Below the pieces are notes generated by a model that had not been told where the DNA came from, made no database searches, and saw only the letters and a program-made list of their open reading frames with translations. Both the position numbers and the translations under genes were made by a program. A stretch of 64,000 nucleotides of DNA. It comes from Oscillospiraceae bacterium (GTDB lineage: Bacteria; Bacillota; Clostridia; Oscillospirales; Oscillospiraceae). The DNA lies in NCBI GenBank assembly GCA_015067495.1, contig SVMI01000001.1, positions 248,001-312,000 on the forward strand. The letters are read 5' to 3'. Below, one piece after another: positions 25,470 to 30,552 of this stretch; position 1 is the stretch's first letter; each line of letters begins with the position of its first letter.

Positions 25470-27634
25470 TAAAAAGTACAATCCCCCGGCTTGACCGGGG
25501 GATTTTTCATGGAATAAGGACGGGCTGTGACGAATACGGTAGACCGGAGGTGGGATTTTTGATTCCTGCGATATGGCTGGTACTGAGCGGTCTGCTTTAT
25601 TCCCTGCAGCTGTCTTCCGGCAGCTTTCCAAAGCCCTTGAGCGCAAAAGAGGAGCAACACTATCTCCAGCTTGCCGCCAAGGGCGATCTGGAGGCACGCA
25701 ACATTTTGGTGGAGCGCAATCTGCGCCTTGTGGCGCACATTATGAAAAAATACTATGCCCAGACCTCGGATCAGGAGGATCTGATCTCCATCGGCACCAT
25801 CGGTCTGATCAAGGGCATCACGACCTTTGACGCTTCCAAGGGCGCGCGACTTGCCACCTATGCCGCCCGCTGCGTGGAAAATGCTATCTATACCTGAATG
25901 AAACATCACACTCCTTTCACGTGCCAAATTAAAATTTACGGTATCCTCCGCACCACGGAGGACGATGTGAACATCATCGTCCCCTGTGGTGTCGTTGTGT
26001 TTAACGGCAATAAAACTAACAATCTTCTTTATCAGTTCAATTGTCTGTTCGTAGGTAGCAATTTCCATCAAGCGAGGGAATGTAGCAATCGAGGATTTGA
26101 TTTGCTCAATCTGTTCAAGCGAATAAGCCTCAGACTCAATTTGCTCGTTAAGCACCGCTATTCTACCACTGAGGTCGTTTTTCTTATCCTGCAAGGCATG
26201 AATATCGTCCCAAATTAATTGCTTGTCGTCGGCAGTTAAACCGCCGTCTCGCAAGTTCTCCATTTGTACGGCAATACCCGACTTGATTTTATCAAGTTCC
26301 TTTTCTAGACCCTTGATTTCTTTCAGTTCTTCCCGATTTGCTTTCAGCAGTTCTTCACGGAGATTCTGCAACTGTACATAGTAGGGGTCGTCGGGACAGT
26401 TCATATGTGCAATGGTATCAATTACCATAGCATCTAAAGCATTGCCGTCTATATCTTCGCTTGAACACCCTAACCTATCTTCCATTCGTTTGCGACAGCG
26501 ATAATTAAATCGTAGGTCGCCCGATTTGGTGTAGCGGTTTGAGTGTGTTCTGACATTCATTCGCTCACCGCAAACGGGGCACCGCACCAAACCGCTGAGA
26601 ACAGACTTGGAGGTCTGCTTGGGACGGTCGTACTTGTCAACATTCTGTTTGAGCAGTTTCTGTACCCGTATCCAGTCAAAACCGCTTACAATGCCCTTGT
26701 GCTCACCTACGGCGACAATCCACTCGCTGATGGGTTTGGTTTCGGTTGTTTGTCTAAATTGGGGGTCAAGCAATGTTGAGGTGTCTTTCTTTTCTTTCTT
26801 CTGGTCCGTTTTGTTGTAGACCATTAAGCCGTGCTTGCCGTCAAACTCGCTTTCTTCGGCATAGATTGTTTCGCAGAACTCCAAGAAATAAGCAAGAGAG
26901 TCCTTGTCGGCAATGCAATACACAGGGTTGCGGAGAATGGTTTTGACGCTCGTCCTTGTGTGCTTTTTGCCGTTTCGGGTGAGTATGCCTTTGCTGTTAA
27001 GATAATCACGAACGGCATTCATTGACTTGGTGTCAAGATACATGCGGTAAATCTCTTTAACTATCTGCAGCTCACTCTCCACAGGTGCTAAATGGTTTTT
27101 GGTCCTCCTCTTTCCCCGAATGTTGATGTTCTCTTTCTTGGACTCGAAACCTAACGGAGTGTTGCCACCGAGCCAACGACCTTCTTTTGCCAGTTCGTGC
27201 AGATTATCAGAAATACGTTCGGCGATAATATCTCGCTCGAACTCGCTGATGACAGACAACAATTTGAGAATCAAGGTGGACTCTGCGGAAAGGTTTGTAA
27301 TTTTGCCCGAACAGGCAATAAAGGTTACACCGCGCTTTTCCAGTAATTCAATGAGTGCCATCATATCATTGGTGTTACGACACACACGGTCCACCTTATA
27401 GCAAAGCAGACACTGGTAGTTGTCAATGTTTCGAATGAGTCGTGTAAACTCCTTGCGGTCAGCATAGAAGCCCGACAAGCCCTCGTCCATAAAAATATCG
27501 GTGTTCTGGTCGGTGGATTTGACATCGAATTGAGAGTAGATATGCGCACGGCACTTTTCAATCTGTGATTGAATACTGTCGCCCTTATCGGTCAACTTTG
27601 ATTTACGAACATATATAGCAAACTTTTTCTCCAT
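25460..27634 (-). CDS. Large serine recombinase (SpoIVCA-type), reading frame crosses the att site
   Basis: The catalytic domain shows YVRKS with Ser12 as nucleophile, DEGLSGFYADRKEFTRL, YKVDRVCRNTNDMM and ISEFERDIIAERI. A recombinase domain (about 160-270), a zinc ribbon (LVRCPVCGERM ... YRCRKRM ... GCSS) and a coiled coil (LREELLKANREELKEIKGLEKEL) follow. AGGAGG precedes the ATG. The element encodes 585 codons with no stop; in the integrated state the last 139 codons run into antisense sigK down to 25460. In the excised circle the same frame joins the double-HTH gene, giving a ~745-residue fusion. It should catalyse integration and excision at sigK. Confidence 0.9.
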   Translation of the reverse strand: MEKKFAIYVRKSKLTDKGDSIQSQIEKCRAHIYSQFDVKSTDQNTDIFMDEGLSGFYADRKEFTRLIRNIDNYQCLLCYKVDRVCRNTNDMMALIELLEKRGVTFIACSGKITNLSAESTLILKLLSVISEFERDIIAERISDNLHELAKEGRWLGGNTPLGFESKKENINIRGKRRTKNHLAPVESELQIVKEIYRMYLDTKSMNAVRDYLNSKGILTRNGKKHTRTSVKTILRNPVYCIADKDSLAYFLEFCETIYAEESEFDGKHGLMVYNKTDQKKEKKDTSTLLDPQFRQTTETKPISEWIVAVGEHKGIVSGFDWIRVQKLLKQNVDKYDRPKQTSKSVLSGLVRCPVCGERMNVRTHSNRYTKSGDLRFNYRCRKRMEDRLGCSSEDIDGNALDAMVIDTIAHMNCPDDPYYVQLQNLREELLKANREELKEIKGLEKELDKIKSGIAVQMENLRDGGLTADDKQLIWDDIHALQDKKNDLSGRIAVLNEQIESEAYSLEQIEQIKSSIATFPRLMEIATYEQTIELIKKIVSFIAVKHNDTTGDDDVHIVLRGAEDTVNFNLARERSVMFHSGIDSIFHAAGGIGGKSRALGSVKGRDALDQTDGADGDQILLIRGLGIVFFHNVRHKAQIALHQNVACLQIALGGKLEIVLLLFCAQGLWKAAGRQLQGIKQTAQYQPYRRNQKSHLRSTVFVTARPYSMKNPPVKPGDCTFYYV
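25480..25507 (+). terminator. Rho-independent terminator of the glycan cluster
   Basis: AATCCCCCGG, short loop, CCGGGGGATT then TTT. Confidence 0.8.
25559..25897 (+). CDS. sigK: Sigma-K, N-terminal part, interrupted by a skin-like element
   Basis: This frame encodes the pro-sequence and region 2 of sigma-K. The first ~25 residues are hydrophobic (PAIWLVLSGLLYSLQL), matching the membrane-bound pro-peptide that SpoIVFB removes. PLSAKEEQHYLQLAAKGD, NLRLVAHIMKKY, EDLISIGTIGLIKGI and LATYAARCVEN follow. Homology stops at codon EN (25882); the next codons belong to the inserted element and reach a stop at 25895. GGAGG is placed for the TTG at 25559; the GTG at 25550 overlaps it. Joining base 25882 to 30190 restores ENEILMYF in frame. 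A sigma-E-like promoter may lie at about 25513-25540 (GAATAA ... GAATACGGT), tentative. Confidence 0.92.
   Translation: MIPAIWLVLSGLLYSLQLSSGSFPKPLSAKEEQHYLQLAAKGDLEARNILVERNLRLVAHIMKKYYAQTSDQEDLISIGTIGLIKGITTFDASKGARLATYAARCVENAIYT
25879..25904. other. attL half-site in sigK
   Basis: The shared core AAATG (25879-25883) is followed by the element arm GCTATCTATACCTGAATGAAAC-type half (25883-25904, 22 bases counting the G). Together with the arm at 30164-30185 it rebuilds a near-palindromic attP. Confidence 0.8.
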
Positions 27635-27694
27635 GTGTTTAACCTCCTATATTATTTATATTTTCTCATGGAAACGGATATTTTGCAAGGCTTA

Positions 27695-28045
27695 TTAGAA
27701 TGGTAAGTCGTCAAGTGGGTCTGCATATTGATTGGCAGAGAAATTGACATACATACCAATGAGTTTGTTGCAGCGCTCCTGTTGCAGGTAGACACAGGAA
27801 ATTGGCACACCCTTTTCGTAGGCGTCCTCTATGAGCCCGTAGTTAGGGTTAAGGTGTAAATGTGTTTCGGGGTCGGTATACTCAAAGACCATAATATTGA
27901 CGTAGTAGGAACGGTCTACATCCTCAACTTTCAATCCAAAGGTTAAGTAACCCTTTTCCTCGTTATACCAAATGTTTTGGATATAACCGCCTAAAAACTT
28001 GTTCTTGGTGCCTCTTTTGGCATTGTTAATTGTTACTGGTTTCAT
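27695..28045 (-). CDS. SSB-like single-strand DNA-binding protein (116 aa)
   Basis: The protein starts MKPVTINNAKRGTKNK and has beta-rich stretches consistent with an OB fold (YIQNIWYNEEKGYLTFGLKVED, VNIMVFEY). The C-terminus, DPLDDLPF, is the acidic-Pro-Phe tail by which SSB proteins recruit replication and repair partners. GAAAGGTGG precedes the ATG. It lies 60 bases before the serine recombinase, probably in one transcript. OB-fold assignment rests on the tail and pattern, not on a database match. Confidence 0.55.
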   Translation of the reverse strand: MKPVTINNAKRGTKNKFLGGYIQNIWYNEEKGYLTFGLKVEDVDRSYYVNIMVFEYTDPETHLHLNPNYGLIEDAYEKGVPISCVYLQQERCNKLIGMYVNFSANQYADPLDDLPF

Positions 28046-28214
28046 ATAAAAACCACCTTTCGTTAATATTGTAAATAAACCTACTAATACATTTTTTTCA
28101 AAATGTCAAGAAAAGAAGATAATAATTATTAACCTATTTACGAAAGTATCTTTTACCTATGTTTAAGACAATTAGCCTATTATCTTACTATAAGGTAGAT
28201 AGCAATTAACTTTA

Positions 28215-28267
28215 TATAAGTTATTAATATTAATATCTTAAGTAAGTATATTAATTAATAACTTATA
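28215..28267. repeat. AT-rich inverted repeat (arms 22 and 20 bp)
   Basis: The left arm (28215-28236) and right arm (28248-28267) pair along their length apart from a 2-base gap, around CTTAAGTAAGT. It sits just past the tyrosine recombinase stop in a ~230-base, almost pure A/T gap (28046-28276). It could terminate transcription, bind a recombinase or act as a replication start. Confidence 0.65.
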
Positions 28268-28276
28268 GGACGGAAA

Positions 28277-29158
28277 TCACTTTTTACTCGATAGGTACGC
28301 GGCACACAAATCGCTTCTTTGCTCGCCATGGCCGAGTGCTTTAAGGGTTGCCCCCTTGCCGTGCGCCTTGCAGTGCTCCTCGGCCCATAATTTGCGAATT
28401 GAGTGAGTGCCGCTCTTGGTTCGCCCGTCGGGGGTGGTTATGTGCAGTTTCTCACAGCGGCGGCGGAGATACTTGTTGACCGAGTCCTTTTTGACCCCGA
28501 AGACCTTGTCCTGCGGATTCTTCCCCTTGATACACTCTCGGAGCAGTTTGGCGGTCTGCTCGTCCATAGGAAGAACTCTCGACCTGGACCCCTTGTCTTT
28601 GAAAACGAGTATCTCGCCCTTTTGAAAGTCTATATGACGGACTTCCAGCCGTTCCAAGGTGTTTACCCTTACCCCTGTCGCATAAGCGAATTTGAGGGCA
28701 TTCAGGCTCGCAGAGGGACGTGGTGCATCCAGTATTCGTTCCATTTCTTCTTTGGTGAATGAATACTGTTTGATTGTGTCGGTGTTCTGCACCTTGCTCT
28801 CGTCAATGGTTACGGAGTAATCGACCCTAGCCCCGTATGCTCTTAAAACACACTTTTCCAGTTTTGCAAGGTAACTGCGATAAGTGCGTGCCGTTTCGGA
28901 ACTGACTCCAGACTCTAGCTTTGTGTCTATGAAGCGCTGACACATAACGGGGGTGATGTCGGCAACCCGTTTGATGTGGTACTCCGAACGGATGAAGCCT
29001 GCAAAGTCGTGGGAGAATTCGTTGAGCGCCTTTTTGGCGGCGAGCGACTTCACGATGTGGGAATTGTCCGACTGCTTGTCGGCCTTGTCGCTGTGCTTGT
29101 CAAAGTGAGGGACGAACACAGTTGCTGAATATAATTGGTAAAATAAACTCTTTGACAT
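28277..29158 (-). CDS. Tyrosine recombinase inside the sigK element
   Basis: The 293-residue protein has a core-binding domain (about 30-140) and the catalytic pattern Arg in ATGVRVNTLERL, Lys in VFKDKGSRSR, HSIR (HxxR), LGHGEQRSDLC and the nucleophile Tyr in AAYLSSKK near the end. AAGGAGA supports the start at 29158; the frame extends upstream to 29296 without a site. A second recombinase is not needed for the sigK reaction, so it probably serves another step, such as dimer resolution or an older integration route. Confidence 0.82.
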   Translation of the reverse strand: MSKSLFYQLYSATVFVPHFDKHSDKADKQSDNSHIVKSLAAKKALNEFSHDFAGFIRSEYHIKRVADITPVMCQRFIDTKLESGVSSETARTYRSYLAKLEKCVLRAYGARVDYSVTIDESKVQNTDTIKQYSFTKEEMERILDAPRPSASLNALKFAYATGVRVNTLERLEVRHIDFQKGEILVFKDKGSRSRVLPMDEQTAKLLRECIKGKNPQDKVFGVKKDSVNKYLRRRCEKLHITTPDGRTKSGTHSIRKLWAEEHCKAHGKGATLKALGHGEQRSDLCAAYLSSKK

Positions 29159-29185
29159 TCGTTTTTGTCTCCTTTCTGAAAGAAT

Positions 29186-29256
29186 AGTCCGCTTTGTCGG
29201 GCGAACTGTGGGCGTCTGTCTTACATCCGCCCTGTGTCCGCCCGTTAAAGCGGACT
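29186..29256. repeat. 18-bp inverted repeat upstream of the tyrosine recombinase
   Basis: AGTCCGCTTT-GT-CGGGCG at 29186-29203 faces CGCCCG-TT-AAAGCGGACT at 29239-29256; only the two middle bases fail to pair. It lies directly upstream of the ribosome binding site, so it could be a leader hairpin or an operator. Shorter hairpins follow to 29440 (CGGTGCC-GA-GGCACC; CCGACTGCCGTCGG). Confidence 0.65.
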
Positions 29257-29494
29257 TGAGTAAGCGGAGTTTTAGGGTGGTCGCCAATGCGAGCACCCTA
29301 AAAAATATCGTTATCGTTCAGTCAAAAGGCGACGGTGCCGAGGCACCCTCTACCCCAAAACAGCGGTATCGTGCCGCCGATAAACCGACTGCCGTCGGTC
29401 GTGCTCAACCAATCGCCCACGATACCCTCACTAGATAAAAGATATACGCATAAGACTTTCTACAACTGAATATCTTTTCACAGGGGGCTAATTT

Positions 29495-29668
29495 ATGGCT
29501 TTTAAAGCGGTCATACATTACCCGAACAGCGAAGAAGATAGGTCAAAGTTGATAGAAGACATGGCTATTTACAGGATAATGATTATGCGCGAATACCTCT
29601 CTAAACTCGAAACCAGTTCGGGTAACAAAATCAAGATTGTTGATGAATTACTTAAGGAAAAGCAATGA
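29495..29668 (+). CDS. 57-residue protein, candidate recombination directionality factor
   Basis: A short frame starting MAFKAVIHYPNSEEDRSKL and ending IVDELLKEKQ, with AGGGGG before the ATG at 29495 and a terminator just past the stop. It is mostly helical and charged and matches no family I know. It is the only plus-strand gene of the element, in the same direction as sigK. In C. difficile a small skin-encoded protein directs excision; by size and location this gene is a candidate for that job, which is inference only. Confidence 0.55.
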   Translation: MAFKAVIHYPNSEEDRSKLIEDMAIYRIMIMREYLSKLETSSGNKIKIVDELLKEKQ

Positions 29669-29704
29669 AAATCGGTGGTGCTTTGTTGCACCACCGATTT
29701 TTCT
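29669..29704. terminator. Bidirectional terminator
   Basis: AAATCGGTGGTGC-TTTGTT-GCACCACCGATTT with A and T tails, shared by the 57-residue gene and the double-HTH gene. Confidence 0.8.
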
Positions 29705-30189
29705 TATGGGATAAAGTGAATGTCTTTGAGTTTATGATACTTTTCTTTCGGGATAATGTTCACACTATGCTCCCATCGTTCAATTTGCCGACGGGTAACA
29801 CCCAACTGCTCACCGAGGTCGCATTGACGCAAATGCAACTCCTTTCGTCGTTGCTTGATGAATACAGAGTAGGGGTAGTCAATGAACTGCAGGTATTCAT
29901 CCATTAACAAATGCCTGTCCACATTGAGTGCCTCAGATATGCGGATAATCACATCATAGGGGCAATCAAGTTGGTTGTTCTCATATCGTATCATAGTTAC
30001 CCTGTCAATGCCGATAAGGTTTGCAAGGTCGTTGCCAAACAGATTCCTTTTCTTTCGGTAAAAAGCAATCTTCTCACCGATAGTGGCATCGTCGCTGATA
30101 GTTCGCAAGGGATAAACAAAGTGGAGCATTGGTTTTCCGCTATTATCAAAGACCACGAAAGAAGTTTCATTGAGGTCAAAATAGCAAAT
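29704..30189 (-). CDS. Double-HTH (XRE-like) protein, 5' end displaced by integration
   Basis: The element part encodes 160 residues with two helix-turn-helix segments: TIGEKIAFYRKKRN ... LANLIGIDRVTMIRYENN, and FIKQRRKELHLRQCDLGEQLGVTRRQIERWE. In the integrated state the frame continues upstream into antisense sigK (open to 30378); an ATG at 30129 with a weak GCGGA upstream could start a shorter product. In the excised circle the frame is continuous with the serine recombinase. It might be a regulator in one state and a DNA-binding tail of the recombinase in the other. Confidence 0.7.
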   Translation of the reverse strand: MCYFDLNETSFVVFDNSGKPMLHFVYPLRTISDDATIGEKIAFYRKKRNLFGNDLANLIGIDRVTMIRYENNQLDCPYDVIIRISEALNVDRHLLMDEYLQFIDYPYSVFIKQRRKELHLRQCDLGEQLGVTRRQIERWEHSVNIIPKEKYHKLKDIHFIP

Positions 30190-30190
30190 G
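30164..30190. other. attR half-site in sigK
   Basis: The element arm at 30164-30185 (GTTTCATTGAGGT ... ATAGC) meets the core AAATG at 30186-30190, after which sigK resumes with GAG ATC CTG. The arm matches the inverted attL arm at 18 of 22 positions. Confidence 0.8.
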
Positions 30191-30552
30191 AGATCCTGAT
30201 GTATTTCCGGGCGCAGAAAAAGTCCAGTCAGGATGTTTCGCTGTCGGATTACATCGAAACCGGCACGGACGGGGCGGCACTTTCCCTGATGGAGGTGGTT
30301 GCCGAGGAAGAGGATCTTTTCGAGTCGGTCTGCGCCCGTCAGCGCTCGGAGCAGGTACGCTGTGCGGTGGCGGAGCATCTGAAGGGGCGGGAAAAGCAGG
30401 TCATTCTCCTGCGTTACGGGTTAAACGGCAATCCGCCCCTGCGGCAGCGGGAGGTGGCAAAGCTTTTGGGCATCAGCCGCAGCTATGTATCACGCATCGA
30501 AACGAAGGCTCTGGGAAAGCTGCAGAAGGTCTTATCCGATAACGAATCGTAA
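30190..30552 (+). CDS. sigK: Sigma-K, C-terminal part
   Basis: This 120-codon segment begins EILMYFRAQKKSSQDVSL, the sequence that continues region 2.4 of sigma-K, and carries region 3 and region 4, with the helix-turn-helix REVAKLLGISRSYVSRIETKAL. It has no start of its own; the open frame upstream is element DNA. With the N-terminal segment it makes a protein of about 228 residues, close to the 241 of B. subtilis. Sigma-K drives late mother-cell genes for coat, dipicolinate and lysis. Confidence 0.92.
   Translation, partial: EILMYFRAQKKSSQDVSLSDYIETGTDGAALSLMEVVAEEEDLFESVCARQRSEQVRCAVAEHLKGREKQVILLRYGLNGNPPLRQREVAKLLGISRSYVSRIETKALGKLQKVLSDNES

What the first reader, a model, noticed from the sequence alone, without database searches (positions are those of the whole stretch)
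25559..30552. sigK split by a minimal 4.3-kb skin-like element
The left frame ends its sigma-K homology at CVEN, the right frame starts at EILMYF; both share AAATG (25879-25883, 30186-30190). Joining them restores ENEILMYF in frame and gives a protein of about 228 residues with pro-sequence, regions 2 to 4 and stop. In B. subtilis and C. difficile, sigK is interrupted at the same region by far larger elements that are cut out during sporulation. Here the whole element is 4307 bp, so it may show the smallest working set for this developmental DNA switch.
Basis: partly seen in the sequence, partly recalled or inferred. Interest (0 to 1): 0.95.

Follow-up and report, generated by a model that had tools for sequence, protein, structure and literature searches.

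The report
Element splitting sigK and its recombinase
A late-sporulation gene (sigK) is cut in two by a 4,307-bp DNA element whose own recombinase reading frame is cut at the same joint, so removing the element would likely restore both genes at once; in relatives the recombinase tails look swapped exactly at that joint.

Summary
sigK is split at CVEN|EILMYF by a 4,307-bp element with AAATG at both ends. Joining the flanks restores a SigK frame, both halves are under constraint, and no second SigK was found in the 97%-complete genome. Ten of ten intact relatives read show the empty site.

It is a skin-like element, but not the smallest: four genomes of another genus carry 1.63-1.65-kb sigK elements holding only a serine recombinase and a small ORF, a putative directionality factor that the window also has (29495-29668).

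The new feature is a reciprocal split. The recombinase frame runs across the joint: on the circle it would continue in frame into the XRE double-HTH ORF at the other end (745 aa). Natural unsplit recombinase-XRE proteins exist (9 and 20 of the best 120 hits of two searches). Elements of either orientation share the design, with exceptions. Unsplit relatives differ by XRE modules exchanged at the joint: one pair is identical for 609 residues up to the core, then 40% identical.

Excision, its timing, mobility and the XRE function are inferred. Proposed: the full-length form serves the free element; the truncated form, with the small factor, excises it in the mother cell.

The parts
25559..25883 (+). 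sigK 5' part: start (TTG behind GGAGG) to the core; the open frame runs on to a TGA at 25895-25897
   Evidence: NCBIfam SigK TIGR02846 19-113, E 4.2e-43; joined frame
25879..25883 (.). attL core AAATG; comparison with L023 (left AAATG, right AAACG) narrows the crossover to AAA
25884..27634 (-). large serine recombinase, first 584-585 codons (within the element); its frame reads on through attL into antisense sigK to 25460 (724 aa in all)
   Evidence: PF00239, PF07508, PF13408 over cut-off; PHROG integrase family 95; ORF
27695..28045 (-). 116-aa ORF, rare family, tentatively SSB-like (OB fold, DDLPF end)
   Evidence: no Pfam, NCBIfam or PHROG match; 14 homologues; low-confidence model pLDDT 63.6, SSB structures among weak matches, none below E 0.001
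28046..28276 (.). AT-rich intergenic stretch (21% GC) with inverted repeats
28277..29158 (-). tyrosine recombinase (293 aa)
   Evidence: PF00589 over cut-off; PHROG integrase families
29495..29668 (+). 57-aa ORF, candidate recombination directionality factor
   Evidence: family found in 28 of 64 loci scanned, 5 of them seeds of the model; the only other gene of the 1.63-1.65-kb elements; no library match
29668..29701 (.). perfect 14-bp inverted repeat between the convergent 57-aa and XRE ORFs, likely a two-way terminator
   Evidence: I10
29704..30190 (-). XRE double-HTH module: open from the core at 30190; first ATG at 30129; on the circle in frame with the recombinase
   Evidence: PF12844 and PF01381 over cut-off; circle frame of 745 aa
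30186..30190 (.). attR core AAATG
30187..30552 (+). sigK 3' part, from AAT GAG ATC (N E I) to the stop
   Evidence: NCBIfam SigK TIGR02846 111-226, E 1.4e-31

Best explanation
A 4,307-bp element, predicted to be mobile, splits sigK at CVEN|EILMYF, and its serine-recombinase reading frame runs across the same joint into an XRE-HTH frame at its other end, so one crossover would likely restore both sigK and a full-length recombinase-XRE gene. Shown in sequence: the sigK joint and its restored frame, the in-frame reading across the element's two ends, natural unsplit recombinase-XRE proteins, the same design in relatives of either orientation, and XRE modules that differ between otherwise identical recombinases from the core onward. 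Inferred: in the chromosome a recombinase without its XRE tail is made, and with the 57-aa ORF as directionality factor it excises the element in the sporulating mother cell; the free circle makes the full-length recombinase-XRE protein, which serves the free or integrating phase (binding the element's DNA, favouring attP x attB). The two DNA states thus encode two versions of one recombinase. How the element moves between cells is unknown.
For: sigK joint, frame and profile match; empty site in 10 of 10 intact genus loci read; constraint on both halves. Circle frame of 745 aa; the same in L023, L082 and L083 of 7 two-ended elements. Natural full-length fusions: 9 of the best 120 and 20 of the best 120. 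Predicted attP in frame in natural unsplit proteins (...EDSK|CY...) against split relatives ending ...EDSK at the core. P0211 and P0249 identical for 609 residues ending at EDSK, then 40% identical; P0211 and P0192 XRE about 100% (rounded) but recombinase 58%. In five genus left ends the XRE frame has no ATG before residue 95, yet the 75 codons after the core have dN/dS 0.18-0.20 in L026 against L031, L034 and L038. Model of P0249: the joint lies in a disordered linker between two folded modules. Movement: P0001 shares the first 586 recombinase residues with the window but has a different antisense-sigK tail; 25 of 26 close relatives have such tails. Sporulation genes present.
Against: No excised sigK or circle was seen in this organism; an attP pattern search of viral contigs gave 0. 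Of 7 two-ended elements, L030 and L080 have no XRE in the circle frame and L032 has a stop at the core. Of 14 genus left ends, 4 lack XRE in frame and 1 is too short. L126 and L130 are not open to the core. The window's XRE has its own ATG 19 codons after the core, and L025 and L028 also have an early ATG, so a separate product is possible; non-ATG starts were not excluded. Some unsplit genes lie on long contigs (P0196, 401,826 bp), so they are not all free circles. No unsplit gene was found among the genome matches. The sigma-E motif scan before the 57-aa ORF is not significant (shuffle p 0.84). SpoIIID scores 109.2 against a cut-off of 111.5.
Confidence: 0.7

Rival explanations
1. An ordinary skin-like element: the XRE gene is an independent regulator with its own start, and the in-frame reading across the element's ends has no function.
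For: The window's XRE ORF has an ATG at 30129; XRE is missing from some elements and from the 1.63-1.65-kb ones, so it is not needed for excision.
Against: 29 natural full-length fusions in the two lists; no ATG before residue 95 in five left ends while codons after the core are constrained; predicted attP in frame in natural unsplit proteins; modules exchanged at the core.
Confidence: 0.12
2. The split is real but XRE is a state-dependent regulator rather than a direction switch: as in integration-dependent immunity, the joint decides which form represses the element's genes.
For: XRE domains are typical repressor folds; precedent in mycobacteriophage BPs (PMC4557955, passages).
Against: The module is joined to the recombinase and not to a separate repressor; no operator was looked for here.
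Confidence: 0.35
3. A dead insertion: sigK is lost, the host no longer needs it, and the halves are relics.
For: No excision data; the organism is known only from its genome here.
Against: Both halves constrained and without stops; recombinase with all three domains; sporulation genes present; the same joint with rejoinable sigK in other families of the class.
Confidence: 0.06
4. An assembly artefact.
For: The genome is in 21 contigs.
Against: The independent record L023 (SVPA01000010.1) has the same element at the same codon in a diverged sigK; 24 of 136 genus genomes show sigK ending at this codon.
Confidence: 0.01

Closest known systems
B. subtilis skin (48 kb; SpoIVCA and Skr)
   Same: Element in sigK, serine recombinase beside the 5' part and facing it; the recombinase frame slightly overlaps the sigK 5' part (passages of PMC10745906); 64-aa directionality factor just upstream of the recombinase (passages of PMC6957869).
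   Different: Prophage-like and over ten times longer. No detached XRE module is mentioned in the passages I saw; its sequence was not examined here.
C. difficile skin (14.6 kb; CD1231 and CD1234)
   Same: sigK, serine recombinase plus small directionality factor; 12-bp shared motif at the joint (introduction and passages of PMC5025042).
   Different: Different sigK site and orientation from B. subtilis; prophage-like with 19 genes. XRE split not examined here.
gin element in gerE of B. cereus (28.6 kb)
   Same: Non-phage element in a sporulation gene with several recombinases; needs GirC and GirX (abstract, introduction, one results section and discussion of PMC5595907).
   Different: Other target gene, 31 genes, three serine recombinases; no split recombinase described in what I read.
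Integration-dependent immunity of mycobacteriophage BPs
   Same: attP inside an element gene, so integration gives a C-terminally shorter protein with another activity (abstract and passages of PMC4557955).
   Different: There the split gene is the repressor and 33 residues are lost; here it is the recombinase, which loses a whole HTH module, and a host sporulation gene is the reciprocal partner.
SCC elements (CcrA/B/C)
   Same: The recombinase's nearest NCBIfam names are CcrB and CcrC; accretion of elements at one site is recalled and mentioned in the discussion of PMC5595907.
   Different: Far below the curated cut-offs (139.9 and 104.4 against 900 bits).

Membership tests
skin / sigK-intervening element | Lies in sigK and precise removal restores the frame | tested here: met
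skin / sigK-intervening element | Carries a large serine recombinase beside a joint | tested here: met
skin / sigK-intervening element | Short shared core at both joints | tested here: met
   AAATG, narrowed to AAA with L023
skin / sigK-intervening element | Encodes a directionality factor | tested here: inconclusive
   57-aa ORF family found with these elements; homology to Skr or CD1234 could not be tested, activity unknown
skin / sigK-intervening element | Mother-cell (sigma-E) control of recombinase or directionality factor | tested here: inconclusive
   motif scan not significant for the window
skin / sigK-intervening element | Excised as a circle during sporulation | not testable with these tools
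   needs reads or culture
skin / sigK-intervening element | Prophage-like gene content (typical, not required: gin and Bcbva island IV lack it) | tested here: not met
   no structural phage gene among the listed ORFs searched; only the two recombinases match phage integrase families
integration-dependent switch (BPs type) | Attachment site inside an element gene, so that integration truncates its product | tested here: met
   circle frame and natural unsplit relatives
integration-dependent switch (BPs type) | The split gene is the phage repressor | tested here: not met
   the split gene is the recombinase
integration-dependent switch (BPs type) | Long and short forms differ in activity | not testable with these tools
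   needs assays
SCC (Ccr) element | Ccr recombinase over the curated cut-off | tested here: not met
   139.9 against 900 bits

The most novel reading that the evidence does not exclude
A self-editing recombinase: attP lies inside the recombinase gene, so every integration rewrites the enzyme's C terminus and every excision rewrites it back. The chromosome makes an excision form, the circle makes a recombinase-XRE integration form, and direction memory sits in the DNA joint itself. The joint is also a protein-module shuffling point: tandem or co-resident elements swap XRE tails at the core, so this recombinase family evolves by running its own reaction on its own gene, with sigK as the reciprocal partner.
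Probability: 0.42. Interest if true: 0.92.

Novelty: new variant of a known kind. Interest (0 to 1): 0.84.

Why it matters
Excision of DNA from sigK is a classic developmental rearrangement, but how its direction is enforced is known for few elements. Here one crossover splits both a host developmental gene and the element's own recombinase gene, which predicts two recombinase forms tied to two DNA states; that can be tested in E. coli with two plasmids. It suggests a route by which recombinases gain and swap DNA-binding modules. The 1.63-1.65-kb relatives suggest a two-gene developmental switch small enough to rebuild in a laboratory strain. In this genus at least 33 of 136 genomes show sigK split at one of two sites, so such switches look common in these bacteria.

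Tried and rejected
Smallest-element claim: rejected. sigma-E promoter before the 57-aa ORF: not significant for the window, p 0.84; that script also picked some start codons wrongly (for example L025, L028, L030), so it is a weak negative. SSB identity of the 116-aa ORF: weak only. Presence of that ORF in the family: 1 of 400 genomes, the window's own. attP pattern in viral contigs: 0. Rfam on the window: 0. P0030 in phage and plasmid records: 1 and 7 weak matches, none covering 80%. Genome-contig scan with the window recombinase: one relative, L023. Unsplit genes in genomes: none among 8, 26 and 22 matches; long open frames there come from antisense tails or from reading through the TGA at the core. 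Viral-contig scan with the unsplit proteins: 20 relatives, matched to at most residue 585 of 753.

Corrected on the way: circle translations with wrong offsets redone; L083 first given a wrong core, then an AA core that restores both frames; the 3' half redone in frame. Left open: whether unsplit genes on long contigs are tandem junctions; the DNA of those contigs could not be read.
Full report
OBSERVATION. The window carries sigK in two pieces. AAATG stands at 25879-25883 and 30186-30190; joining the flanks gives one frame with the SigK motif YAARCVENEILMYFR. NCBIfam puts the left piece on SigK positions 19-113 and the right piece on 111-226. The 10 intact genus loci fetched all show the empty site GAAAATGA. 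Against five intact relatives the 5' half has pN/pS 0.14-0.19 and the 3' half 0.24-0.34. The genome (1.98 Mb in 21 contigs, 97.1% complete) has SigG and SigE over a curated cut-off and a SigF-like protein below it, and no second SigK was found. Spo0A, SpoIVA and an M50 protease are over cut-off; SpoIIID scores 109.2 against 111.5 bits. The element has 44% GC against 56% in the flanks.

GENES. From left to right: large serine recombinase (-), 116-aa ORF (-), AT-rich gap, tyrosine recombinase (-), 57-aa ORF (+), XRE double-HTH ORF (-). The recombinase frame reads through attL into antisense sigK, 724 aa in all. The 116-aa ORF has 14 homologues among 5.8 billion proteins and is tentatively SSB-like (the DDLPF end as an SSB sign is recalled). 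Among the proteins searched only the two recombinases match phage families, as integrases.

A SECOND COPY, AND MOVEMENT. L023 (SVPA01000010.1, titled Oscillospiraceae bacterium isolate SIG579) has the element at the same codon in a sigK whose halves are 55% and 48% identical to the window's, while the element proteins are 83-100% identical. It is 6.9 kb because about 3 kb lies between the 57-aa ORF and the tyrosine recombinase. Its right core reads AAACG, which narrows the crossover to AAA. In the protein database P0001 equals the window recombinase for its first 586 residues and then changes to another antisense-sigK tail (27 of 79 identical); 25 of 26 close relatives have such tails and the 26th, P0019, ends DTDSK, as in the opposite orientation. 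This fits recent transfer between hosts; the route is unknown.

THE RECIPROCAL SPLIT. On the excised circle the recombinase frame would continue without a stop into the XRE frame at the other end: 745 aa...SGIDSI|CYFDLNETSFVVFDN.... A search with that reading found 9 natural full-length fusions among the best 120 proteins, at 37-41% identity and 97-100% coverage. Relatives in sigK include elements that face the other way, with the recombinase at attR. There the recombinase frame reaches the core, where sigK usually supplies the stop (AAATGA), and the XRE frame starts at attL in the matching phase. In the genus search, 16 of 22 loci have the recombinase beside the sigK 3' part and in 14 of the 16 it is open to the core; L126 and L130 are not. 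Of 14 genus left ends 9 have XRE in the matching frame (two cut by contig ends), 4 do not and 1 is too short; L032 and L039 are not in that 14 (L032 has AAATGA at its left core and a reduced HTH read in sigK's frame; L039 ends before the core). Of 7 two-ended elements, the window, L023, L082 and L083 give a complete fusion while sigK is restored; L030 and L080 have no XRE in that frame and L032 has a stop at the core.

SELECTION ACROSS THE JOINT. In five genus left ends (L026, L031, L033, L034, L038) the XRE frame has no ATG before residue 95. Between L026 and L031, L034 or L038 the 75 codons after the core have dN/dS 0.18-0.20 and the later codons about 0.02. So the codons after the core seem to be translated as the continuation of something before it; non-ATG starts were not excluded, and L025, L028 and the window do have an early ATG. 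Between the window and L023 the 19 codons from core to ATG hold two synonymous and one non-synonymous change, too few to weigh.

SHUFFLING AT THE CORE. A second search, with the L082 circle reading, gave 20 natural fusions among the best 120. Five of them (P0196, P0211, P0249, P0250, P0253) read ...HWGE[DN]SK|[CY]Y..., while the split genus relatives L040 and L041 end ...EDSK at the core. P0211 and P0249 are identical for 609 residues, ending at EDSK, and 40% identical after it. P0211 and P0192 have XRE modules of about 100% identity (rounded; the last 124 residues are identical) but recombinases of 58%; P0207 and P0192 about 100% (last 191 residues identical) and 63%. Such exchange is what site-specific recombination between co-resident or tandem elements would leave; homologous recombination nearby is not excluded. 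P0196 lies on a 401,826-bp contig, so unsplit genes are not all free circles. The AlphaFold2 model of P0249 (mean pLDDT 73.6, pTM 0.36) puts the joint in a disordered stretch, 550-630, between the recombinase and the HTH module.

NOT THE SMALLEST. Four genomes of one other genus (L109, L110, L111, L114) have sigK elements of 1,634-1,648 bp; joining restores a sigK frame, and inside lie a recombinase of about 450 aa and a 68-70-aa ORF of the 57-aa family. That family was found in 28 of 64 loci scanned, 5 of them seeds and some loci overlapping. It is the candidate directionality factor by analogy with Skr upstream of spoIVCA (PMC6957869, passages) and CD1234 (PMC5025042, passages). No XRE was seen in these mini-elements, which suggests that XRE is not needed for excision (inference).

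HOW COMMON. From, of 136 genus genomes: 24 show sigK ending at the window's codon, 9 at a second site near residue 64, 75 are contiguous over both sites and 28 are unresolved. G016, with an intact and a split copy, is counted as contiguous; G112, cut by a contig end, as unresolved; often only one half was seen. The listing was cut, so the split counts are lower bounds. In the class, 7 of 8 recombinase matches lie beside sigK and 21 of 26 in a second search have sigK sequence in the fetched locus; four genomes are in both.

MECHANISM PROPOSED. Integrated: the recombinase lacks XRE and sigK is off. In the mother cell the 57-aa factor would turn the recombinase to attL x attR; the circle leaves, sigK is whole and the recombinase gene regains XRE. 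The full-length form then serves the free phase, by favouring attP x attB or by regulating the element. The integrated state and the reading frames are shown; excision, timing, direction control and the XRE role are inferred.

LITERATURE. Searches of the held open library listed no paper whose title or abstract start describes a serine recombinase gene split by its own attP; most subscription papers are not in it. The closest is integration-dependent immunity, where attP lies in the repressor gene (PMC4557955, passages). The overlap of recombinase and sigK 5' frames in B. subtilis and B. cereus biovar anthracis is in print (PMC10745906, passages), so the antisense tail is not new; the detached XRE module and its exchange are what I did not find.

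Noticed in passing
L045, L049, L125, L126, L134 (genus genomes G103, G089, G075, G118, G124): sigK in this genus has at least three insertion sites: near residue 64 (KK|YYAQ), at CVEN|EILMYF, and near residue 213 (GISRSYVS|). Some genomes look doubly interrupted, for example G124 with sigK piece 65-113 between two elements.
   Followed up: partly
L109, L110, L111, L114: sigK elements of 1,634-1,648 bp in one genus, holding only a recombinase of about 450 aa and a small ORF; by eye the recombinase lacks much of the coiled-coil stretch.
   Followed up: partly
L023 3501-6477: The larger copy of the window's element has about 3 kb of cargo, mainly a 642-aa repeat protein, between the 57-aa ORF and the tyrosine recombinase.
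   Followed up: no
window 25880-27634 against L023 8001-9755: The recombinase genes are a mosaic: dS is 1.2 overall but 0.13 in the last 40 codons before the core, which suggests recombination near the joint.
   Followed up: no
L052 (IMGVR_UViG_3300002450_000450): A contig filed as viral has a recombinase of this family beside a sigK 5' fragment, so it may be a sigK element.
   Followed up: no
L003 (own genome, SigE): The SigE protein also reads CIENEILMYIRK, close to the SigK insertion site, yet is uninterrupted here.
   Followed up: no
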